The notes under the pieces are model-generated. The model saw only the letters and a list, made by a program, of their open reading frames with translations, searched no databases and was not told the DNA's origin. The position numbers were made by a program, and so were the translations under genes. A stretch of 49,793 bases of DNA, taken from positions 1 to 49,793 of IMG/VR virus record IMGVR_UViG_3300032753_000046, one strand, 5' to 3'. Source of the DNA: a virus. Shown here piece by piece: positions 2,734 to 36,558 of the stretch (within the stretch, counting starts at the first letter, position 1; each line of letters starts with the position of its first letter).

Positions 2734-3834
2734 TTAAATATTGGGTAGTTCATCGTAATTTAGGTCATGTGACATGATTCCGACTACGTAATTAGTACTT
2801 TCTGACTCTTGCAGCGCCGTTTGTTTCTTACTAGTATCCATGTGTTTGTTGAACCATGGAATAGGAGTGGACTTTGGAGCCGGATTCCAATACTTAATAC
2901 CAATCTGCTTCAATGCATCTACAGCATTGTAATCCACAAAATCTATCATGATTCGTTCGTTAAGACCTATAACCGGGCCCTTCTTGAACAGATATCCGGC
3001 CCATTCCTTTTCTTCACGTATAACATCTTCATAAATCTTACGGACTTCTGCTTCGCATTCATTTTTTGCTCGCAAAAATCGAGGATCTTCTTTGATCACT
3101 TGGTTAATCATCCAGGCAGTCCACTCTTTGTGCAGTAACTCATCTTGTAAAATAAGACTGATGATGTTGCCATTACCCATAAAGATTTTGTTTTCTACCA
3201 TCGCAAGTGACGTAGCAAATGAAACCATAAATCGAAAAGCCTCAAGTGCATAAGATGCATGTAGCGCTAGCCAAATAGCATTAATGTGTTCTTCCTCAGA
3301 AACATCAATACCGCATTCTTTCTTACAATTTAATAGATGTAAACGATCATAGTATTCACCTACACTTGCAGCCATATCGATGATTTCTCTAGTATCGTGA
3401 ACGGTGTTGAAAACTTCCTTAGGGACGTTATAGATGTTACGAATAATGTGTGAATACGCCCGAGAATGAATATTTGTTTCAAAAAAGGACCAATTGGACA
3501 TGATTGCTTCTAGTTCCGGAATAGAACATGCTGGCGTAAACACCTGCGCAGGTGCTCGGCCTTGTATACTATCTAAGGCTGTCTGTCTCAATAGGTTACT
3601 AGTAAACATATGTGCTACTGTCTCGCTAGCATCTTTCATGTCATTGGCATCTTTAGTCAAACTGATTTCTTCTGAAATCCAAAAGAAGCCGCGGGCAGTT
3701 TGCTCTATTTTTGCTAGCTTATTATATTTTACTTCCTCAAATCGTTGGATGGTTACGGGACCTGCTGGATCCAGGAACATCTTGCGATGCAGGTAGTCTG
3801 TCTTGGTATTGAGATTGTATTGCGCTTTACTCAT
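2734..3834 (-). CDS. nrdB: Class Ia ribonucleotide reductase beta subunit
   Basis: A 366-residue NrdB that carries the diiron-tyrosyl radical cofactor for making deoxynucleotides. Visible ligands match E. coli NrdB: Asp in ALDSIQGR (D84), Glu, His and the radical Tyr in ETNIHSRAYSHI (E115, H118, Y122), Glu in LEAFRFMVSF (E204), and Glu/His in QDELLHKE (E238, H241). I chose ATG 3834 (MSKAQYN) because it follows the upstream stop by one base; the in-frame start at 3876 would add 14 residues inside the neighbour. No intein or intron interrupts it, unlike nrdA. Confidence 0.96.
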   Translation of the reverse strand: MSKAQYNLNTKTDYLHRKMFLDPAGPVTIQRFEEVKYNKLAKIEQTARGFFWISEEISLTKDANDMKDASETVAHMFTSNLLRQTALDSIQGRAPAQVFTPACSIPELEAIMSNWSFFETNIHSRAYSHIIRNIYNVPKEVFNTVHDTREIIDMAASVGEYYDRLHLLNCKKECGIDVSEEEHINAIWLALHASYALEAFRFMVSFATSLAMVENKIFMGNGNIISLILQDELLHKEWTAWMINQVIKEDPRFLRAKNECEAEVRKIYEDVIREEKEWAGYLFKKGPVIGLNERIMIDFVDYNAVDALKQIGIKYWNPAPKSTPIPWFNKHMDTSKKQTALQESESTNYVVGIMSHDLNYDELPNI

Positions 3835-3835
3835 A

Positions 3836-4420
3836 TTATTTTTTAGATCCAATGTTAGCCGGAGCATTACCACCAACCGGATATGTCACACCTTCTGCGG
3901 CCTGGGTAAATCCAATCTGGCCAGGTTTAACATGATCGTTAGTCCAAGGACTTTCCATGATAGGTCCATAACACGAAGCCAACTTTACTCCATTGACTTT
4001 TTGTGCTTGGATCTCGCATGGAAAACTCCACATATTGCTCATACCGGTTGTAGGCGTTGTGCCAATAATGAAGCTTCTAAATTGTGCAGGTGCCACCGCC
4101 CAAGTGGGTTGTTGTGGATAACTGGTCTGGGCTGGAATGCCAAACAAACTCCAAATTTTACCTGGACCAGGAGCATCACATGACCCATTCATCAGGTTTA
4201 GGTTGGCCGCAGCATCACCGTGAAGTATTGGACATGCTGCCATGCCTTCTTTGAATGTTTTGCCATTGACCTTCATGGTTTTACCTGTTGGCGTAGTTGG
4301 ACTTGCGGCACATAGAGCATAGTCAATATTTTTACAGACATGCAGTGGCTCAGCTAAAACTGCGCCGGCGCCGACGGCGAATAATACTAATGCTGTTGCT
4401 ACGATATTTTTAAATTTCAT
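3836..4420 (-). CDS. Secreted protein with Sec signal peptide, function unknown
   Basis: A 194-residue protein with a textbook signal peptide: basic MKFK, a hydrophobic core (IVATALVLFAVGAGA) and an AVLA-EP cleavage site after residue 23. The mature part (about 171 residues) holds six cysteines, which suggests disulfides formed in the periplasm, and is rich in Pro, Gly and Ala. ATG 4420 is preceded by AAGGA; the longer frame from 4468 would place charged residues before the signal. It sits between a homing endonuclease and nrdB, one base from nrdB, although it has no obvious link to nucleotide synthesis. It may be a host-derived accessory (moron) gene. I do not recognise the family. Confidence 0.8.
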   Translation of the reverse strand: MKFKNIVATALVLFAVGAGAVLAEPLHVCKNIDYALCAASPTTPTGKTMKVNGKTFKEGMAACPILHGDAAANLNLMNGSCDAPGPGKIWSLFGIPAQTSYPQQPTWAVAPAQFRSFIIGTTPTTGMSNMWSFPCEIQAQKVNGVKLASCYGPIMESPWTNDHVKPGQIGFTQAAEGVTYPVGGNAPANIGSKK

Positions 4421-4708
4421 TTTTTTTCCTTTAGTTCTTTCCATTCTAAATCTTCTATAGGAACCCAACCGTTCCTAAAGTTTGTCTTTCATCTTTGCGT
4501 GATACTTCTTCATTGCTTCGCTATGTTGTTCGCACCACTCTTTTGTCCCACTACGGCCGCTCATTGCTTTGCTTTGATTCTTTTTATGCTCTTCTGTTTT
4601 ATTAATACCTTTAGTAGTCTTCTTTACGTACGGAGCAATGCTTTCGCTGTAGGTGTATTTAATCTGCTTTCCTTTACAACTCGGTATCTTGTGTTGGAAT
4701 CCAACCAC
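4417..4708 (-). pseudogene. Debris of a homing endonuclease C-terminal half
   Basis: A 77-codon frame (4475-4708, GTG first codon) encodes a NUMOD3-like helical segment (NKTEEHKKNQSKAMSGRSG). It overlaps the end of the intact HNH gene in another frame and has no plausible ribosome site. In a third frame, at 4417-4488, lies FRNGWVPIEDLEWKELKEKK followed by TGA. This is a second copy of the typical endonuclease ending, and the intact gene ends in YFRSGWIPTQDTEL. The pieces look like a decayed tail of a second endonuclease, or of a partial duplication, broken by at least one frameshift. An independent small gene at 4475-4708 is possible but less likely. Confidence 0.65.
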
Positions 4709-5342
4709 TTCTAAAATATTTTACCATATTCATATACGGTCCTATAACTTTGCTTTCATTAATATAACTCTTATCGTTCACTAATGTATATAACTTACAG
4801 TACGAGGGTTTATTGTTTTCTACCCAAACATTGTAAATCGTTTCTGCTTGTTTCCAAACAGATTTAGAATAATCTGTTGCTCTTGGATGATTCCAGGGCT
4901 TAACACCAGAACATGGATTTTTTTCACCCGTCATTCGGGTAGACATTGATTTTAATGTGTCGTCCGAAAAGTTGACTTTATTTTTATAGCCTGTCATACC
5001 CTTGTTCCATGGTCCGTTTAGTTTTGCCGGGTTATTAGGACCGCGCATATATTCGGAATATTGTCTCTTTAACCAGCCATATGACTTGTTGTTTCTCTGT
5101 TGTTCACTATTTGATGATAGCATAAACATAGCGGCCTTTACCAGTCGTATATTGTTAGGATACAGTTTAACTAATAACAGATGACACAAATAATGTTCTT
5201 CAGGAGTCAATGATACTAAGTTAGATGCGTCATCGGTTCCACCAAGACATTTAGGAACAATATGATGCTTCTCGCTATATCCTTCTAGTATTCTACTCTG
5301 TCCTCTACTTACTAATGTATTGTATATTTTTTCATAGTTCAT
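4674..5342 (-). CDS. HNH homing endonuclease (HEG1)
   Basis: A 222-residue free-standing HNH endonuclease. The nuclease core is N-terminal (EKHHIVPKCLGG, then NLVSLTPEEHYLCH at about residues 25-55), with the paired His and the Asn/His of the HNH fold. A NUMOD3-type DNA-binding motif follows (GEKNPCSGVKPW, about 135-150). It ends GWIPTQDTEL. The ATG has a good site, CAGGAG, 7 bases upstream. It lies just downstream of the nrdA C-terminal gene, a favoured target of phage homing genes. A late promoter inside an inverted repeat precedes it (separate entry). Confidence 0.9.
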   Translation of the reverse strand: MNYEKIYNTLVSRGQSRILEGYSEKHHIVPKCLGGTDDASNLVSLTPEEHYLCHLLLVKLYPNNIRLVKAAMFMLSSNSEQQRNNKSYGWLKRQYSEYMRGPNNPAKLNGPWNKGMTGYKNKVNFSDDTLKSMSTRMTGEKNPCSGVKPWNHPRATDYSKSVWKQAETIYNVWVENNKPSYCKLYTLVNDKSYINESKVIGPYMNMVKYFRSGWIPTQDTEL

Positions 5343-5351
5343 GTAAATCTC

Positions 5352-5379
5352 CTGTAAACTTATTTATCATAGTTTACAG
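5352..5379 (-). promoter_or_regulatory. Late promoter inside RBS-masking hairpin, HEG1
   Basis: A perfect 9-base inverted repeat (CTGTAAACT / AGTTTACAG) with a 10-base loop. On the minus strand the loop holds GATAAATA (5361-5368). The 3' arm runs into the Shine-Dalgarno AGGAG of HEG1. RNA reading through from nrdA can fold the hairpin and mask the site. A transcript begun about 6 bases after the motif (near 5355) lacks the 5' arm and leaves the site open. A further AGTTTACA copy lies at 5389-5396. Confidence 0.75.
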
Positions 5380-5398: not shown

Positions 5399-6487
5399 CT
5401 ATAACTTACAACTCTCGCAGGAATCTTCATCTTCAAAAAAGTCTATAGGCATAAGAGGTGCATCGTCGGCTTCTTCTTTAGAACCTTGTTTACACACGAG
5501 GCTATAATAAAGCGTCTTGAGACCGAACTTATGTGCTAGCATCAAATTTTTAGCAATTAGCGTAGTTGGTATCTTGCGATCAGGGAAATGTGCTGGATTA
5601 TAGAACGTATCAGTTGAAATTGATTGATCCATGTATGCAGCAAGAACAGCAGAGGTCTTAAGATACTCGACGCAATCAACCTGATCCCACATCAACTGAT
5701 AATTCTTTCTGACCTTAATATTATGATATTCTGGGACAACTTGCACGAAGGATCCCGCTTTTGATTCCTTAACAGAAATCAAACTCATTGGTAGTGCAAT
5801 ACCATTAGTTGAATTAATGGCAACAGATGAAGATTCAACCGGAGCAATGGCACCAACTGTGCTGTTTCGCACACCATACTCTTTCATTTCAAATCGTAGT
5901 GATTCCCAATCAAGCTCAGGATTAAAGTCTGCTAGCTCGTTTACACCATTGGCTCTAAGTTCCCAGGGAAAGATTCCTTGACCATAGCGGGTCTTGTCAG
6001 AGTCAATGCACTTTCCACGCTCTTTTGCCAATTCTACATTTGCTTCCATGAGGTAGTAAGTCTGGTGTTCTGCCCAACTCTTTACGTCCTGTAGTGCATC
6101 TGAGTCTCCGTACTTATATCCGCGCTTAGCGTGCCAGTATGCGAGATTAGTTACACCGATACCGATTGGACGAATCTCGTCATTCGATAACTTAGACTGA
6201 ATAGAAAGGAAGTCTTGATAATCCAAAATGTTATTCAGACTTCTTAGTAGAATACGACATGCTCGGCGCATATCTTCTGGGTTACGGAACGCACCCCAAT
6301 TAATACTCCCTAAGGTACACAGCGCAATTCGGCCGGCCTCATCATCTAGTCTCTTGAATGACTTTGTAGGTAGTAGGATCTCGCAGTTATGAACTAATAT
6401 GTTATTAGCAAAGAAACATTCTGTTTCAGGCACAGATAAGTCATATACATCGGTTGGTTCTACTTTAATTTTTTTAATTTTAATCAT
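5399..6487 (-). CDS. nrdA: Split intein-C fused to NrdA C-terminal half
   Basis: A 362-residue protein. Residues 1-34 are an intein C-fragment: block F-like VYDLSVPETECFFANNILVHN, broken here as VYDLSVPETECFF plus ANNILVHN, ending in the penultimate His and terminal Asn, with Cys35 as the +1 nucleophile. Residues 35-362 are the C-extein of class I NrdA, opening CEILLPT and including ALCTLG (the C462 equivalent of E. coli), TLYY (the Y730/Y731 radical relay) and the C-terminal redox pair CESC. Trans-splicing with the product of 7453-9108 would give a 773-residue NrdA, close to E. coli (761) and T4 (754). Its ATG overlaps the stop of the endonuclease gene (ATGA). Confidence 0.94.
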   Translation of the reverse strand: MIKIKKIKVEPTDVYDLSVPETECFFANNILVHNCEILLPTKSFKRLDDEAGRIALCTLGSINWGAFRNPEDMRRACRILLRSLNNILDYQDFLSIQSKLSNDEIRPIGIGVTNLAYWHAKRGYKYGDSDALQDVKSWAEHQTYYLMEANVELAKERGKCIDSDKTRYGQGIFPWELRANGVNELADFNPELDWESLRFEMKEYGVRNSTVGAIAPVESSSVAINSTNGIALPMSLISVKESKAGSFVQVVPEYHNIKVRKNYQLMWDQVDCVEYLKTSAVLAAYMDQSISTDTFYNPAHFPDRKIPTTLIAKNLMLAHKFGLKTLYYSLVCKQGSKEEADDAPLMPIDFFEDEDSCESCKL

Positions 6488-7419
6488 ATTTTTATTCTTC
6501 CTAATACATAATTTGGATTATGTTTACAAAATTCTTCTTCGTCTGTGACTCTTACATTTTGTACGCCGTTGTTGTACCATCGATGTTTTTTTGAGTGTTC
6601 TGCTGCAACCCGTCGTTGCTCTGCGCTTCTATGATATGGATTATATTTGATGTTTAGATTCAAGTTCTTATTCGTTTCGTTTATTAGATTTTCTAAAGAT
6701 CCAAACTTTTTGCCTATCCACGCCAATGAAATTTTCTTAAACTCTACAAATTCTTTTTTCATATTATCCTGCAATAAGTGTAACTTCAAGTAACCCTCTT
6801 GACAAGATTCAGACACACATTTCCACATTCTTTCTCTTCGATCCTGAGTTAATTCCTTAAAGTTAGTATTTTTAGAACCAGACATATCTCTTGCAGACTT
6901 TCCAGGAACGCCTTTACTATGATGAACCCATTCCCCTGATAAAACTTTAGGGTGATCTACGGAGACTGATCCTATTTTTTCTCTAGTCACAGCATCGACA
7001 ACAGGCATCTTTCCTTTTCTTGCCTTACTAATACATTCATTGCCTAGTAGTCTTAAGTGTTCCATTTCTTTAAGAAACTTTTCATCAACATCTGACAAAT
7101 TAATTTGTCGTTTGTGGTTGCCTGTCGCTTTTACAAAAAAGAATTGCAGGGCAGAACCAGCAGAGTATTCATAACGAGTTCCTTTATAAATCTCATACAA
7201 GTAGTAATGAGCCATTAAGTGTTCGGAAAAAGTCAATAGAATTAAATTCTCCGCGCTATCTGGATTACCGTCTAGATGCCCGTTTGGTCCTGTTCTCTTT
7301 CTGTTCTTGTACAAGAAATCAGGAACGATATGGTGTCGTTCATAATATGTTCCTTGATTTCTCATTCTGTTTTCTTTTCTTGCGTTGTCAATTATAGTCT
7401 TATAAAGTTCTTTATACAT
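6484..7419 (-). CDS. HNH homing endonuclease in the nrdA break (HEG2)
   Basis: A 311-residue HNH endonuclease with core motifs ERHHIVPDFL (about residues 27-36) and NLILLTFSEHLMAHYYL (about 60-76), followed by a long basic DNA-binding region. It occupies exactly the gap between the intein-N and intein-C halves of nrdA and overlaps the C-half start by four bases. In the known fractured-gene arrangement such a gene spreads the split intein by cutting intein-free nrdA alleles. The ATG has GGAGAAA 8 bases upstream, within a small CATATG hairpin adjoining a late promoter (separate entry). It shares the HNH class of HEG1, but the rest is divergent. Confidence 0.92.
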   Translation of the reverse strand: MYKELYKTIIDNARKENRMRNQGTYYERHHIVPDFLYKNRKRTGPNGHLDGNPDSAENLILLTFSEHLMAHYYLYEIYKGTRYEYSAGSALQFFFVKATGNHKRQINLSDVDEKFLKEMEHLRLLGNECISKARKGKMPVVDAVTREKIGSVSVDHPKVLSGEWVHHSKGVPGKSARDMSGSKNTNFKELTQDRRERMWKCVSESCQEGYLKLHLLQDNMKKEFVEFKKISLAWIGKKFGSLENLINETNKNLNLNIKYNPYHRSAEQRRVAAEHSKKHRWYNNGVQNVRVTDEEEFCKHNPNYVLGRIKI

Positions 7420-7444
7420 ATGAATTTCTCCATATGTATTTATG
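7417..7444 (-). promoter_or_regulatory. Late promoter beside start-codon hairpin, HEG2
   Basis: On the minus strand CATAAATA (7437-7444) is followed directly by CATATG, GAGAAATT and CATATG. The two CATATG copies can pair and trap the start codon, with the Shine-Dalgarno sequence in the loop. A late transcript starting 6 bases after the motif begins at 7431, the last base of the 5' arm, so the hairpin cannot form and the site GGAGAAA is free. Confidence 0.72.
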
Positions 7445-7452
7445 TTCGGGAA

Positions 7453-9108
7453 TCAAATTTCAACACATAACTCGTCAGTTTCAACTAATTCATCGGCTCT
7501 TACATAACCTCTATTCTTAGTAAAAACACGATGGTCTCCTGTGCATCTCAATACATTACCGTTTTCATCTTCAATTTCATACAGTTCGGTGACTGTTTTA
7601 GTTTTAATTGCCGCAGAAATATTTTCCCAGGAAACTTCACCATTCTTAAAACTTTTAATCTTTGAAGTAGTTAAATTACCTAATTCAAATCTTTCCACAG
7701 CACTAGAAACAGACATTTGTTCTGTGTTGCCGTTTTCGTGCAAGAAAGTTACTTGTGTTTCACCGGTTACACAGCAAAGGTTAGATTGATATATAGTATG
7801 GTACTCAGGATCGAACGGGCCTTGCTTCATAACATTGTCGATAAAGACCAAATAGATGCGGCCAGTGTCTGTGCGTTCCTTTAGTATGCCTCCCTTAAAC
7901 ACTTCTTCAGCACTCATTGTCTTCTTACGAAGGTCTTTACGTTTCTCGTACTTTACATAAAGTTCTTCAAACTTTGCTGTGTTCTTATAGAACGCTTCAT
8001 ATAAATCTGGAACTTCATTTGGATCAAAGAAGGTGATGTTTTCCTTATTCTTGAATCGGCGCCAGAAGAATGCACTGAGAACAACGCCATAATCCATATG
8101 ACGAACACGGGTTTCTTCGGTTCCCTGATTATTCTTTAATACAATTAGGTCATCGAATTGGTGATGCCAGATAGGATAAAAGACAGTGGCGGATGCGTTT
8201 CTGATTCCTCCCTGAGAACACGAACGGAGGTCTCCGAACCATTTCTTTAGAAAAGGAATCATACCGGTATGCATGATTTCTCCGCCGCGAATTGGCGAAC
8301 CTAATGAACGCAATCTTCCTATCTCTAGTCCAATACCAGCACGCTTGCTCGCATACTTTGCCATCATCTCTCCGGAAGCAAAGATGCTATCTAGATCATC
8401 GTCGCTACGAATAAGAACGCAGCTACTAAATTGTTTAGTAGGAGTGCCAAGGCCAGCAAGCACAGGAGTAGCAAGAGTAAAAAGCCCATCACTCGCAGCA
8501 TTATAATATTCCTTAATATATCGCATTCTGGCTGTATTAGGTTCTTCGCTGTGAAAAACCGTCGCGGCGGCGATCATGTATCTAACTTGTGGAGTTTCGT
8601 AGATTTCTTTAGTTGCTCTGTTGCGAACTAGATACTTTTCTACTAATTGTTCAATCGCCGCATATGAATATTGCTCATCCTTTTCATGGTCAAGCATTTC
8701 ATTCATTTTATTCCAATCGTCTTCCGTATACCAATCAAGCAGTTCAGATGTATACAGCCCTACTTCTACGTTCTTCTTTACTATCTCATAAAGATGCGGC
8801 GGCTGAAATTGTCCATATACGTCTTTGCGCAACATAGACAGTCTTTGCTTACCTGCCACAAATTGGTAATTGGTATGACCAACGTCCGGATTAGATTCAA
8901 TATCAATTAGGTCTACTATTGCGCGCAGGGTTAGCTCGTCAATTTCTCTAGTAGTAATGCCATCAAAAAAATGAGGAGAAGCTTTGATTTCAATCATCGA
9001 TTGGCTAATGTCAGCGATGCCGCTACAAATTTTAGCGATTTGCGACTGCCACTTTTCTAGTTGTAGGGGTTCGATTATTCCTGATCTTTTTGTTACATTA
9101 ATTGTCAT
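7453..9108 (-). CDS. nrdA: NrdA N-terminal half fused to split intein-N
   Basis: A 551-residue protein. Residues 1-445 are the N-extein of class Ia NrdA: an ATP-cone at about 1-95, the C225 equivalent at Cys230 (QFSSC), and a final SNLC whose Cys445 matches the E. coli thiyl-radical Cys439. Residues 446-551 are intein-N: Cys446 nucleophile (CVTGETQV), block B CTGDHRVFT with the TxxH pattern, and ending ELCVEI. The intein therefore splits the catalytic N-x-C-x-E strand between C439 and residue 440. Splicing with the 5399-6487 product restores SNLC-CEILLPT. The start overlaps the upstream gene (ATGA). Confidence 0.95.
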   Translation of the reverse strand: MTINVTKRSGIIEPLQLEKWQSQIAKICSGIADISQSMIEIKASPHFFDGITTREIDELTLRAIVDLIDIESNPDVGHTNYQFVAGKQRLSMLRKDVYGQFQPPHLYEIVKKNVEVGLYTSELLDWYTEDDWNKMNEMLDHEKDEQYSYAAIEQLVEKYLVRNRATKEIYETPQVRYMIAAATVFHSEEPNTARMRYIKEYYNAASDGLFTLATPVLAGLGTPTKQFSSCVLIRSDDDLDSIFASGEMMAKYASKRAGIGLEIGRLRSLGSPIRGGEIMHTGMIPFLKKWFGDLRSCSQGGIRNASATVFYPIWHHQFDDLIVLKNNQGTEETRVRHMDYGVVLSAFFWRRFKNKENITFFDPNEVPDLYEAFYKNTAKFEELYVKYEKRKDLRKKTMSAEEVFKGGILKERTDTGRIYLVFIDNVMKQGPFDPEYHTIYQSNLCCVTGETQVTFLHENGNTEQMSVSSAVERFELGNLTTSKIKSFKNGEVSWENISAAIKTKTVTELYEIEDENGNVLRCTGDHRVFTKNRGYVRADELVETDELCVEI

Positions 9109-12800: not shown

Positions 12801-14405
12801 CCCTGCTACTGCGTTAGCAGTGGTAGCATATGCGACTGCACCAGACACATTAGCTCCTGCTACTGAGTTAGCAGTGGTAGCATATGCGACTGCACCTGTG
12901 ACATTGGCTCCAGGAATTCCAGTCAATCCATTAGCGTTACCCGTGAACACTCCTGTATTAGCAGTGAAGTTGGGAGCCGTAACAGTTCCATTAACACTTA
13001 AGCTAGAGAGAGTACCAACTGATGTGATGTTTGGTTGTGCATTAGTTGTCACTGTACCTGCTGTAGTTGCAGATGTAGCAGAGCCACTAAGTGTGCCTAC
13101 AAAACCAGTTGCTGTGATATAGCCATTGGATAGATTTGCGCTGAAATTAGCATTTGATGCGTGTGTATAGTTACCATTTGCGATTGATGATATGAATGGA
13201 ATATAATAAGTACCAGTTGAGGCTGAGTTACTAAGAACTGCGGCTGCATTGGTTGCGCTACCTACTGTACCTGAAACGTTGGCTCCGGCTACCGAGTTAG
13301 CAGTTGTAGCATATGCGACTGCACCGGTTACATTGGCGCCGGCAATAGATGATAGACCGCTACCATTACCTGTAAACACCCCTGTATTAGCAGTGAAGTT
13401 GGGAGCCGTAACAGTTCCATTAACACTTAAGCTAGAGAGAGTACCAACTGATGTGATGTTCGGTTGTGCAGCAGTAGTTAATGTTCCGGTTAAATAATTA
13501 GCGAAAACACTATTGGCGCCGTCGAGATTACCGGCAGTAATATTTCCAGTAACACCTAAGGTACCAGATATATTAGCTCCGGTCGACGTAACCGTAAATG
13601 TTGTGTTGCCATTTACCGCTGTAACTACGTTTCCACCTGAAGTAGCGATATTGGTATAGCTAGCACCATTAACAATTTTAGGTCCGGGTGCAGTAATTAC
13701 ACCAGTAAGATAGTATCCATTTCCGCTAAAGAAATTTGCAGTTACGGTATTACCTAAATTAGCATTAGCTGCATTAACATTTCCAGAAAAATTACCAGTA
13801 GCTGCGCCCACTGTACCTGAGTTTGCATAAACATTGCCAGCAGAAACATTAGAAATTACTGATAGGTTCGCTGTAAAGTAACCATTTCCCGCATTAACAT
13901 TTGATACATTCGCATTGCCTGAATTAGCATAGATGTTACCAGTAGAAAATAGATTTCCTGCAGACACATTACCAGTAGCAGAAAATGAAGTAGATGTGAA
14001 GGAATTGTTAGCTACAATGTCGTTTGCCGTGATAGTTTGTGCAGCAGTAATATTATTAATGTTAGCAACATCATATGGTAAATCTACTAGAAGAATGTCT
14101 GTAGATTTAGTTACTGTTGCAAGGCCTCCTGATTTACCGGAGTTATTTGACCCGTTGATACCGACGGCTAATGTAGTGCTGGTTACCTGAACACAGGCAA
14201 TATTAGCTGATACTACCACATTTCCTGTAGGAGAGTTGACAGTAATTCCAGCGCCCTGAGATTTATTTACAGATAAAACTGATTGAGATTGTAGCGTGTC
14301 AAACAGTTGACTAAAGTTATTCTGGGTTTTTTGAAATGCAATACGAATTGCATCCGCATTTGGATCGTCTGGAAAAGTACCAAAATCTATGTTCTGTTGA
14401 CTCAT
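9870..14405 (-). CDS. Long repetitive tail fiber protein
   Basis: A 1511-residue fiber. A short N-terminal head ([20 protein letters not shown]) with a helix (about 20-45) probably anchors it to the virion. The shaft consists of degenerate beta repeats ([26 protein letters not shown]-type, [16 protein letters not shown]) over about 1300 residues. The last 125 residues form a distinct domain ([18 protein letters not shown] to EVAVGRF) shared with the second fiber of this window. It very likely binds the cell surface. ATG 14405 overlaps the endonuclease stop (ATGA); the longer frame from 14432 lies inside that gene. Confidence 0.88.
12952..13460 (-). repeat. 80-base exact direct repeat inside fiber gene
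   Basis: Bases 12952-13031 and 13381-13460 are identical over 80 positions, offset 429 bases (143 codons, in frame). The intervening segment is itself made of the same kinds of module. This is recent duplication of a fiber shaft block, and it would permit in-frame expansion or loss of 143 residues. Confidence 0.9.
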
Positions 14406-14986
14406 ACTATTACCTTTTGTAGGTGTTTGCAATTATCCATGTGATATCGCTTCATGTTTGAACTTCCTCCGGAAGTATTGCAATGTGGACAATTAAGGAT
14501 ATATTGTGATTTGTATCTCATACCAAGCTTTGACCTAGAATTAGCCAATCTGCGTTCCGTAGTATGAGGAGTTGTATTTTTACCTAACATCGACAGTCTA
14601 CGTTGTTCATTAGATTTAACCGTGTGTTTTTTTCCTGTCATTCCCATAGCCTTTCCCTTGGAAGAGGCTACTCGTTTTGCTATCGTTTCTTGTGATTGTT
14701 TGACACCAGATGCACCATCACCACCATCATCAGTTTGGTTCCTAAGTATACCTGTGCCCAAATCAATGCGCCCATACCAACGAATCATTCTTCGTTCAAG
14801 TGTCAAAGCACCCAAGTTGGTCAACCCGGATTCCAAAATTATAATTTTTCGCTTATCCTGCGGTGGATGTACGGTATCAGACCTACTATGGTTCCATGCT
14901 CGGTCGCCCTTACCTTTACCGACGTAATAAGGCGTCCCGTCGCTGCGAAGATATGCATATACGTAAAAGGATAACGGGTCATTCAT
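14402..14986 (-). CDS. GIY-YIG homing endonuclease
   Basis: A 194-residue GIY-YIG family endonuclease. The N-terminal core reads [21 protein letters not shown] (shown in parts: [16 protein letters not shown]), with the conserved catalytic-region Arg (GDRAW) and Glu (TLERRMIRW). NUMOD3-like [12 protein letters not shown] motifs follow, then a C-terminal zinc finger CPHCNTSGG and YHMDNC. It lies between the late promoter at 14993 and the fiber gene, whose ATG overlaps its stop, so it has been inserted ahead of an essential structural gene. The ATG has no Shine-Dalgarno sequence; the late motif ends 6 bases before it. Confidence 0.9.
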
Positions 14987-25669: not shown

Positions 25670-25715
25670 GTAGGATTAAAAAATCCTTGGTTAGACGCAC
25701 CTTCGAAGGTTTTTT

Positions 25716-25723
25716 GATAAGTA
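25716..25723 (+). promoter_or_regulatory. Late-like promoter, leaderless geometry
   Basis: GATAAGTA on the plus strand (one base from GATAAATA), then TTAGT, then the ATG at 25729. No Shine-Dalgarno sequence. A 12-base palindrome ACCTTCGAAGGT lies at 25699-25710. Confidence 0.5.
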
Positions 25724-25728
25724 TTAGT

Positions 25729-26085
25729 ATGCTGAAAAGACCCATCTGTAAGACCTGTAATAAGAACTACTGTGCCGTCAACTACAAGAAGAACGGAGTG
25801 ACGCATTACCGTAGTATTTGTGATGGGTGTGGAAAGAACAAGCCTAAAAAGAAGGCACAGGTTCATACTTGGGAGAAGGCTGGATACAAGAAAAAATCCA
25901 CTTGCGACCTATGCGGATTTAAAGTAGTTTATCCCAGCCAAACAACGGTGTTCCACATTGACGGGGACTTAACTAATGTATCGTTCAATAATTTAAGGAC
26001 GATATGTTTGAATTGCGTTGAAGTAGTGAAGCGCAAAGAAGTCACTTGGAAACGCGGAGATTTGACAGTAGATTGGTATAAATAA
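25729..26085 (+). CDS. Zinc-finger HNH-type protein (endonuclease VII-like)
   Basis: A 118-residue plus-strand protein with two zinc-binding pairs: CKTCNKNYC and CDGCGKNK, then CDLCGFKV and CLNCVEVV. Between the last two lies an HNH-like core, FHIDGDLTNVSFNNLRTIC, with His, Asp and the Asn typical of the fold. The family resembles the recombination endonuclease VII/HNH proteins common in phages, where the pattern is HHIDGN...NL..LC..C. The first His of the pair is Phe here, so activity is uncertain. It lies alone on the plus strand, divergent from the sheath gene, as a mobile gene would. Confidence 0.75.
   Translation: MLKRPICKTCNKNYCAVNYKKNGVTHYRSICDGCGKNKPKKKAQVHTWEKAGYKKKSTCDLCGFKVVYPSQTTVFHIDGDLTNVSFNNLRTICLNCVEVVKRKEVTWKRGDLTVDWYK
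26077..26084 (+). promoter_or_regulatory. Exact T4 consensus late promoter
   Basis: TATAAATA on the plus strand, overlapping the stop codon of the upstream HNH gene. The predicted start is near 26090. The leader to the ATG at 26146 can fold: GTAGTT pairs with AACTAC, and ATACT pairs with AGTAT around AAGGAG, partly masking the ribosome site. Confidence 0.75.
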
Positions 26086-26145: not shown

Positions 26146-26722
26146 ATGTCTATTTATAGAAAAACCAACTACCGCAAAATATACGAAGACCACAATGGTC
26201 CCATCCCCGTAGATGAGGATGGGAGAACCTATGAAATACACCATCTTAGATGGGAATAGAAAAAACAACGATCCTAACAATCTGATTGCCGTCTCTATAC
26301 AAGATCACTACGACATACATTATTCCCAAGGAGACTGGGGTGCGTGTATTAGAATAGCCCAAAGAATGAGTGTGTCCCCTAGCAAAATATCCGAATTGTC
26401 AAGCCTTCACAATAAGAAAAGACTAGAGAACGGAACACACCTCTTTTTAGATAGTGAGTTTCAACGAAGCATGGTGAGAAGACAAATAGCAGACGGAAAA
26501 AGTGCCCTAGTCGGAGGAAAGCTACAAAGGGAATTAGTAGCTAGTGGAAAACACCATCTATTATCCGGAGACATACAACGAAGATCAGCAAAACAACGCA
26601 CGGACGAAGGTACTCATCAATGCGTTGTAAAGACAACCTGTCCGCACTGCGGTAAAGAAGGAACAAAGTTAATATTAGCTAGATGGCATTTTGATAACTG
26701 TAAGTCTAACCCTAACCGTTGA
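26146..26722 (+). CDS. HNH homing endonuclease broken by a +1 frameshift
   Basis: The 5' frame (26146-26259) starts MSIYRKTNYRKIYEDHNG, preceded by AAGGAG, and reaches EIHHL before stopping. The 3' frame (open from 26213 to 26722) continues DGNRKNNDPNNLIAVSIQDH, completing the HNH signature if one base is skipped at CTT-A-GAT (26245-26251). The rest has repeated basic helices and a C-terminal zinc finger CPHCGKEG and WHFDNCK like that of the GIY-YIG gene. It is either a recent pseudogene, a sequencing error, or a +1 frameshift on CUU, where tRNA slippage to UUA keeps Leu. Its end overlaps the gp1 gene tail by 11 bases, convergently. Confidence 0.78.
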
Positions 26723-35202: not shown

Positions 35203-36471
35203 TTACGCTGCGCCGATAGTCACGATTGGGTAAGGTTGAGCATTTGCTGTATTTGCGTCTGCTGCCGCTGCACTATTGAACGTTGCATATGCAGGGTTTG
35301 CATTTTCTAGAACGATGTTGCCGGTAGCAGTAGTTCCTGAAGTGGAACTGAATAGTTCCGCAGTGTGATCGCTCAAGCTTTGAACATTAACAGTTGAACT
35401 ATTTGCATAAGTTGCAGTAATAGTCATTGTGTTTGGTGTTAGAGCAGTATTAGCAAGATTAGCAGTATATGCTGCACCCACGATACCAGTTGTAGTGCCC
35501 TTTACCAAATACTTTTGCTTGCCCTTTTGACGCACAATGTATCCTGCTTCTGGAAGAACCTGAACGAATGGGTCTCCGTAACCAGTTGGACCACTTGAGT
35601 TATTAGCTGAAACGGCACTCAACACAACACGATTTTGAACTGCATTTCCAGTTACGCTAACGTTTGAAGTTAGTGCCTGCACCGCGCCGCCTGGTGTAGT
35701 AGAAACAGTGAATGCTGCTGCGTTAGCGATAGTTTTGACAAAGTAAGTTGTACCTGCAGTTAGGTTACCGAAGGATGCGTCAAATACCACCGGAGTATTT
35801 ACAGTAAGTGTTTGAGCATTACCTGAAGTACCTATAACGTTACCTGTTGCAGTAGTGTTAGCAACAGCTACCGTTAGATTGCCGTTAGTTGAGGTCGTAG
35901 TTCCTAAAAGTTGTTGTGATCCATCAGCCCAAATTGCGTAAAGAATAGTACCAGTTGCAACGTTTGCAAAATCAGTACCTAATCCTACAACCACATTGCT
36001 TGACGTGGAAGCAAACTCAGTACCAGTGCCGTTTACACCAAATCCTACATTACATAGAACTTGATTACCGTAAAGAGCAGTATTTCCACCTACTACTGAG
36101 TAAGTGTTTGCATTAGTTGCAGGCCATTGTGATCCGGTTGGATTGTTGAAATACATGTCAACTGGAGCAACAGTAGTCGAAACAGAACCCGAAGCAGTGC
36201 TTAGTGGAACTTGTGCATTAGTTGGATTAGCATTAAGCGGTGTTGCAGAAACAGTGAAGGTGCTATTGTTTCCTGCATTCAATATGCTAAGAATCCAATA
36301 TAGCTTTCCGGCAGTAAGTCCACCGATGCTAGATGCAGTTACGAACGGCATACCTGCAATAATACCTAGCGTGGTGAAATTTGCTGAAGTTGTTACGACG
36401 TTGGTCGTAGTAGTTGTGTTTGTGATAGTTACGACTGCTTGTGCCTTCGCAATCTTTAGAGGACGTCCCAT
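35203..36471 (-). CDS. Beta-rich virion structural protein
   Basis: A 422-residue protein starting GRPLKIAKAQ, an N-terminus shared by virion proteins of T4-like aquatic phages. It is very rich in Thr, Ala, Ser and Asn, with repeated beta segments (LTAGKLYWILS, LTAGTTYFVKTI, AAFTVSTTPGG). The two LTAG-x-x-Y segments suggest an internal duplication. The C-terminal 120 residues (GYIVRQKGKQKYLVKGTTTG) are better defined and might be a decoration or tail domain. It has a late promoter and a highly structured leader. Confidence 0.72.
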   Translation of the reverse strand: MGRPLKIAKAQAVVTITNTTTTTNVVTTSANFTTLGIIAGMPFVTASSIGGLTAGKLYWILSILNAGNNSTFTVSATPLNANPTNAQVPLSTASGSVSTTVAPVDMYFNNPTGSQWPATNANTYSVVGGNTALYGNQVLCNVGFGVNGTGTEFASTSSNVVVGLGTDFANVATGTILYAIWADGSQQLLGTTTSTNGNLTVAVANTTATGNVIGTSGNAQTLTVNTPVVFDASFGNLTAGTTYFVKTIANAAAFTVSTTPGGAVQALTSNVSVTGNAVQNRVVLSAVSANNSSGPTGYGDPFVQVLPEAGYIVRQKGKQKYLVKGTTTGIVGAAYTANLANTALTPNTMTITATYANSSTVNVQSLSDHTAELFSSTSGTTATGNIVLENANPAYATFNSAAAADANTANAQPYPIVTIGAA

Positions 36472-36558
36472 TTGTTTTCTCCTTTATGTGTGGGTTCTAG
36501 CCACTACGCGGTGGGTAACCGCGTAAACTCTCAACAGAGTGTTCTTTCTATATTTATC
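36472..36558 (-). promoter_or_regulatory. Late promoter with structured 5' leader
   Basis: GATAAATA at 36551-36558 on the minus strand starts a leader of about 74 bases to the ATG at 36471. The leader has an ACTCT/AGAGT stem and an 8-base stem TACGCGGT / ACCGCGTA (36505-36512, 36518-36525) with a 5-base loop, then AAGGAG before the start. The stems leave the ribosome site free and would protect the RNA. Confidence 0.75.

What the first reader, a model, noticed from the sequence alone, without database searches (positions are those of the whole stretch)
5399..9108. Fractured nrdA: split intein at the catalytic cysteine with an endonuclease gene in the break
Seen: one gene ends in an intein-N (Cys nucleophile, TxxH block B), the next but one begins with an intein-C (ends ILVHN, then Cys), and an HNH gene fills the gap, overlapping the C-half by ATGA. 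The insertion is just after the residue equal to E. coli Cys439, inside the N-x-C-x-E active-site strand, so neither half can work unspliced. Split inteins in fractured phage nrdA genes are known from metagenomic data; here the whole locus is intact, and the intervening nuclease is a classic HNH type. Trans-splicing would yield a 773-residue NrdA.
Basis: partly seen in the sequence, partly recalled or inferred. Interest (0 to 1): 0.85.

Follow-up and report, generated by a model that had tools for sequence, protein, structure and literature searches.

The report
Split-intein nrdA with inserted homing endonuclease
In this freshwater phage the gene for a DNA-building-block enzyme is broken in two at its active site by a self-splicing protein element plus a DNA-cutting "homing" gene, a known kind of arrangement, whose many relatives found here show intact, decayed and deleted forms and so record how natural split inteins can persist after the homing gene is lost.

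Summary
nrdA is broken directly after the codon equivalent to E. coli Cys439. The upstream gene ends in a 106-aa IntN, a MobE-like HNH homing-endonuclease gene (HEG) fills the gap, and the downstream gene starts with a 34-aa IntC. Joined exteins give 773 aa. No uninterrupted nrdA was found in the window or in a 175.7-kb contig identical across the locus.

The kind is known: "fractured genes" with split inteins (Dassa 2009). A cultured Yersinia phage (TG1) has the same three-gene layout one codon away; Klebsiella phage KP13-7 has a split intein at this very site with a GIY-YIG gene. So this is a new member, not a new system.

New detail came from about 60 related loci. Intein-free alleles read SNLC|CE. 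All 54 complete inteins keep C1, TxxH, HN and a Cys/Ser +1. The HEG leader carries a covarying hairpin over its start codon and a T4-like late-promoter motif (22 of 25 leaders). The HEG moved between intein lineages inserted one codon apart. Decayed and deleted HEGs leave the halves split with the HEG's last codons as a footprint; one element appears re-fused in cis. Splicing and cutting are inferred, not shown.

The parts
7774..9108 (-). nrdA-N extein, residues 1-445 of NrdA, ending SNLC (last Cys = E. coli Cys439)
7456..7773 (-). IntN, 106 aa, Cys1, block B TGDH (TxxH)
   Evidence: TIGR01445 above cut-off; profile match to NrdJ-1 split intein 8ubs E 1.4e-21
7437..7444 (-). CATAAATA, T4-type late-promoter-like motif; predicted +1 at 7431
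   Evidence: ATAAATA in 22 of 25 HEG leaders vs 1.6 expected; same motif sits upstream of 13 gene starts in the window vs 2.4 for permuted motifs
7415..7438 (-). hairpin TACATATG/CATATGTA over the HEG start codon and Shine-Dalgarno
   Evidence: covariation at 5 of 10 pairs, 93% of cells paired, 0/500 shuffles
6484..7419 (-). HNH-type homing endonuclease gene, 311 aa (MobE-like)
   Evidence: phrog_655 E 4.7e-13; conserved H29,H30,N58,H67,H71; median dN/dS 0.07
6499..6502 (-). AGGA, candidate Shine-Dalgarno of nrdA-C inside the HEG 3' end
   Evidence: kept in most HEG-deleted relatives
6386..6487 (-). IntC, 34 aa, ends ILVHN; start overlaps HEG stop (ATGA)
   Evidence: TIGR01443 above cut-off
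5399..6385 (-). nrdA-C extein, 328 aa plus stop, begins CEILLPT (+1 Cys)
4674..5342 (-). second HNH HEG (222 aa) between nrdA-C and nrdB, same PHROG (MobE position of T4)
   Evidence: phrog_655 E 6.3e-57; ATAAATA at 5361-5367 and an apparent hairpin CTGTAAACT/AGTTTACAG read by eye
2734..3876 (-). nrdB, RNR small subunit
   Evidence: PF00268 E 9.7e-39

Best explanation
The locus is a fractured nrdA. A canonical Cys1/Asn/+1-Cys split intein sits at the radical-cysteine codon, and an HNH homing endonuclease gene occupies the gap that would otherwise hold a linker or endonuclease domain. Both NrdA pieces are made from the nrdA transcript, NrdA-C from its own Shine-Dalgarno inside the HEG's last codons. 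The intein halves associate and trans-splice, giving a 773-aa NrdA in which Cys445 (Cys439 in E. coli) and Cys446 are adjacent. The HEG is kept silent on read-through transcripts by a hairpin over its start and is expressed late from an ATAAATA promoter whose transcript lacks the 5' arm. It then cuts alleles lacking the element in co-infecting phages, spreading itself and usually the intein. Shown here: anatomy, conservation, covariation, empty sites, HEG decay, deletion and exchange. Inferred: splicing, late timing, cutting and homing.
For: Intein models on both halves; C1, TxxH and HN in 54 of 54 complete loci, +1 Cys in 53 and Ser in 1; nearest solved structure is the NrdJ-1 split intein. 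Empty site SNLC|CEIL in 76 of 76 close intein-free relatives and SNLCCE in 112 in the larger set. The element is patchy: 10 of 125 distinct NrdA-N sequences, 7 changes on the tree, at least 4 forced; 2 of 80 relatives ranked by extein alone carry it. HEG under purifying selection. Leader: motif 22/25 vs 1.6 expected, median fold z -3.6, start accessibility 0.29 on long vs 0.74 on late transcript, covarying hairpin. Known precedent for such control: I-TevI-III, segB, Aeh1 mobE (PMC2988022).
Against: No splicing, transcript or cutting data exist. No co-conversion signature was seen in the flanking exteins, although synonymous sites are near saturation. The HEG model has no significant PDB fold match and Pfam HNH models are not reached. 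Many leaders belong to one clade and are not independent.
Confidence: 0.88

Rival explanations
1. The two NrdA pieces assemble non-covalently, as in Aeromonas phage Aeh1, and the intein halves are inactive relics or docking domains.
For: Aeh1 NrdA-a/NrdA-b is active without an intein (PMC2988022); relatives L088 and L029 carry a GIY-YIG fracture with no intein and charged tails on the N-piece and, in L088, the C-piece.
Against: All splicing residues are kept in 54 of 54 loci; the break lies at the radical cysteine; intein dN/dS is low.
Confidence: 0.07
2. The HEG's real target is not the empty nrdA site but the HEG-less split intein: the HEG alone is mobile among inteins, and the intein is its safe harbour.
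For: HEG of b-site element L006/L094 groups with a-site L087/L090 (100/96) and a-site monophyly is rejected for the HEG (AU p 0.006), while the intein data reject that grouping (p 0.0004); DNA identity L094 to L087/L090 is 84-93% in the HEG, 50-53% in IntN codons 1-50, 60-62% in the first 20 C-extein codons. HEG-less split inteins exist as targets.
Against: Ordinary recombination between two HEG-bearing elements would give the same pattern; groups for the AU test were named after similarity had been seen.
Confidence: 0.25
3. Assembly chimera or pseudogene.
For: Metagenomic contig.
Against: Same layout in many independent metagenomes and in a cultured phage; frames open; low dN/dS.
Confidence: 0.01

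Closest known systems
Fractured genes with split inteins (Dassa et al. 2009, doi 10.1093/nar/gkp095; text not held, cited through PMC3653736; content partly from memory)
   Same: Conserved DNA-metabolism gene broken by a split intein with a free-standing endonuclease gene in the break; 7 nrdA and 2 nrdJ cases in ocean metagenomes
   Different: From memory, half of those HEGs are Vsr-like; here a MobE-like HNH gene, and relatives show GIY-YIG genes, remnants or nothing in the same break
Yersinia phage vB_YenM_TG1 nrdA (KP202158)
   Same: nrdA-N/HNH HEG/nrdA-C; HEG 34% identical over 84% of the protein; split intein of the same family; late-promoter hairpin upstream of the HEG
   Different: Intein inserted one codon earlier (SNL|C, residue 440 Ala)
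Klebsiella phage KP13-7 nrdA (OP617745)
   Same: Split intein at the same SNLC|C site, IntN 53% identical
   Different: GIY-YIG gene in the break; a second split intein and HEG further down, plus another interruption
Aeromonas phage Aeh1 mobE in nrdA
   Same: MobE-like HEG breaks nrdA; hairpin and late-promoter control (PMC2988022)
   Different: No intein; pieces work non-covalently
NrdJ-1 split intein (PDB 8ubs, 9omb)
   Same: Nearest solved intein, E 1.4e-21
   Different: Host gene is nrdJ

Membership tests
Split intein (class 1) | Cys/Ser1, TxxH block B, His-Asn end, Cys/Ser/Thr +1 | tested here: met
   window sequence; 54/54 relatives
Split intein (class 1) | halves on separate ORFs between blocks B and F | tested here: met
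Split intein (class 1) | protein trans-splicing | not testable with these tools
   needs bench work
Fractured gene (Dassa type) | endonuclease ORF between the two intein-bearing gene halves | tested here: met
Fractured gene (Dassa type) | homologous uninterrupted alleles exist | tested here: met
   76/76 SNLCCEIL alleles; 112 in the larger set
HNH homing endonuclease (MobE-like, phrog_655) | profile match to the family | tested here: met
   E 4.7e-13; viral fold matches to MobE and T4 MobB E 1.7e-6 and 7e-5, low TM
HNH homing endonuclease (MobE-like, phrog_655) | Pfam HNH domain over cut-off | tested here: not met
   AHH 13.9 bits, cut-off 22.3
HNH homing endonuclease (MobE-like, phrog_655) | site-specific DNA cutting | not testable with these tools
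   needs bench work
Late-switched phage HEG (I-TevI / Aeh1 mobE mode) | start-sequestering hairpin whose 5' arm is lost from a late transcript | tested here: inconclusive
   hairpin and promoter motif are present, conserved and covarying; the late transcript itself was not mapped
Aeh1-type gene in pieces | no intein at the break | tested here: not met

The most novel reading that the evidence does not exclude
The HEG is an autonomous rider that moves between distinct split-intein lineages (inserted one codon apart) and arrives with its own late switch and the downstream gene's ribosome site. Its loss leaves the intein permanently split, because the break keeps a stop, a Shine-Dalgarno and a start; only a rare in-frame deletion re-fuses the halves. 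Natural HEG-less split inteins would then be fossils of HEG homing.
Probability: 0.5. Interest if true: 0.62.

Novelty: new member of a known kind. Interest (0 to 1): 0.45.

Why it matters
The single locus is a further, clean example of a fractured gene. The relatives matter more: one insertion region of one gene shows empty, full, decayed, HEG-deleted and re-fused states, with tractable cultured members (TG1, KP13-7). That makes the origin and persistence of natural split inteins, and the order in which endonuclease and split arise, directly testable. It also supplies new split inteins of the NrdJ-1 family for protein ligation.

Tried and rejected
Fold search of the HEG model: no significant PDB match, viral matches of low TM. 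Co-conversion tracts in exteins: none seen. Exact TATAAATA in the window is not enriched (2 vs 4.1 expected); the degenerate core ATAAATA is placed at gene starts. Group I introns as the cause of the other nrdA breaks: no Rfam hit; the break at residue ~298 proved to be another intein in the two cases read, L125 and L134. A wider search for the L088 GIY-YIG fracture found only L088. The primary papers of Dassa, Friedrich and Gibb could not be read: the Dassa DOI is not held, the others were cited through PMC2988022.

Full report
What is there. On the minus strand, nrdA is broken into two genes. The upstream gene (9108-7453) encodes NrdA residues 1-445 followed by a 106-aa intein N-part; the downstream gene (6487-5399) encodes a 34-aa intein C-part followed by 328 NrdA residues; a 311-aa endonuclease gene (7419-6484) lies between, its stop overlapping the downstream start by ATGA. 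NCBIfam intein_Nterm and intein_Cterm both exceed their cut-offs. In alignment with E. coli NrdA the residue before the break is Cys439 and the +1 Cys takes the place of Leu440. No other NrdA-family match is present in the window or in a 175.7-kb contig that is 100% identical over 15.65 kb.

Which families. The nearest solved intein is the NrdJ-1 split intein (profile E 1.4e-21). The endonuclease falls in PHROG 655, homing endonuclease (E 4.7e-13), with conserved HH, N and H positions; Pfam HNH models are not reached, and a predicted model (pLDDT 78.5, pTM 0.48) has no significant PDB match. A second gene of the same PHROG (5342-4674) sits between nrdA-C and nrdB, the place T4 mobE has (PMC2988022).

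Relatives. Searches of IMG/VR gave 61 distinct loci bearing this intein, 54 of them complete enough to compare. All 54 keep Cys1, TxxH and His-Asn, and the +1 residue is Cys in 53 and Ser in one. Close intein-free relatives read SNLC|CEIL in 76 of 76 cases, and SNLCCE in 112 in the larger set. The element is patchy: 10 of 125 distinct NrdA-N sequences, 7 changes on the tree, at least 4 forced by starred branches; of 80 relatives ranked by extein alone two carry it. Cultured Yersinia phage TG1 has the same three-gene layout, and Klebsiella phage KP13-7 has a split intein at the same site with a GIY-YIG gene in the break. The kind is therefore known, as Dassa et al. 2009 described (cited in PMC3653736).

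Two sites one codon apart. In the window's type ('a') the intein follows Cys439 and residue 440 is Cys (Ser once). In the other type ('b', including TG1) it precedes Cys439, which itself is the +1 residue, and residue 440 is Ala, Ser, Gln or Thr. The intein tree needs at least four changes between a and b. The a site is thus used where residue 440 offers a nucleophile. How the shift arises is not known.

The endonuclease moves separately. In the HEG tree the b-type L006 sits with a-type L087/L090 (support 100/96), and a-type monophyly is rejected (AU p 0.006); the intein data reject L006+L087+L090 (p 0.0004). DNA identity of L094, which has the same b-type element, to L087/L090 is 84-93% in the HEG and 91-97% in its leader, but 50-53% in IntN codons 1-50 and 60-62% in the first 20 C-extein codons. 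The groups were named after similarity had been seen, and recombination between two HEG-bearing elements is an alternative to homing.

Life cycle. Full HEGs are under purifying selection (median dN/dS 0.07). Five scored loci hold HEG remnants; eleven have split halves with no detected HEG; three are contiguous mini-inteins. Sister pairs differ in state with strong support, e.g. L089 full and L004 deleted (100/98), L088 and L115 (100/86), L098 and contiguous L138 (100/99). In HEG-less split loci compared with a full sister or close relative (L004, L104, L109, L115, L133, L134, L135, L137) the last codons of the HEG remain in front of the IntC start, and in most of them these carry the Shine-Dalgarno. 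So these halves stayed split after the HEG was lost. L138 carries a HEG-like tail out of frame inside a contiguous intein, which suggests re-fusion. The two other contiguous alleles (L128, L132) lack a footprint and could be ancestral.

Control of the endonuclease. The HEG leader in the window reads CATAAATACATATGGAGAAATTCATATGTA. The core ATAAATA occurs in 22 of 25 leaders (1.6 expected from shuffles), median fold z is -3.6, and predicted accessibility of the start region rises from 0.29 on a long transcript to 0.74 on a transcript starting at the predicted late +1. In 14 related leaders the hairpin has changes on both sides at 5 of 10 pairs and 93% of cells paired, above all 500 shuffles and all slid controls. 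In the window ATAAATA lies within 80 nt upstream of 13 gene starts against 2.4 for permuted motifs, although the exact TATAAATA is not enriched. This matches the control described for I-TevI, I-TevII, I-TevIII, segB and Aeh1 mobE (PMC2988022). The timing itself is inferred.

Verdict. What is new here is the set of natural intermediates around it.

Noticed in passing
L125:5094-5540; L134:4763-5265: Relatives carry another intein in NrdA at residue ~298 (SC|SQGG): contiguous in L125, and in L134 split very near its N-terminus (IntN about 23 aa), an atypical split.
   Followed up: partly
L088:3273-4400; L029:2777-3784: nrdA broken a second time 10-15 residues downstream by a GIY-YIG gene without intein; the N-piece gains a lysine-rich tail and, in L088, the C-piece an acidic head, as if for non-covalent assembly; L088 also has the split intein. 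The L029 GIY-YIG C-terminus is 42% identical to residues 242-308 of the window HNH HEG, suggesting a shared DNA-binding module.
   Followed up: partly
L102 (Klebsiella phage KP13-7) 3998-9528: nrdA in four annotated pieces with two split inteins, each with a putative HEG in the break, and a small HNH gene at a third interruption; annotated largely as hypothetical.
   Followed up: partly
L154, L157, L158, L161, L166, L170, L172, L173: Divergent lineage at the same SNLC|C site with a ~390-410 aa ORF that looks GIY-YIG-like (YYVYILLD..PFYVGKG, by eye) in the break; nearest NrdA-N match only 24-29% identical.
   Followed up: no
window 36469-36541 (-): freshwater-2 RNA (RF02980), 65.2 bits, upstream of a structural gene; fits a freshwater origin.
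   Followed up: no
window 4475-4708 (-): 77-aa ORF after the second HEG with a NUMOD3-like stretch (TEEHKKNQSKAMSG), perhaps a detached HEG DNA-binding tail.
   Followed up: no
window 14402-14986 (-), 25687-26085 (+), 26213-26722 (+): Further HEG-like genes: one GIY-YIG-looking with a sub-cut-off NUMOD3 match, two with weak HNH matches.
   Followed up: no
L297 (Dickeya phage XF4) 3998-7300: NrdA of 1101 aa with a contiguous large intein at the b site (SNL|CFTGD...LVHN|CLEI), about 350 aa.
   Followed up: no
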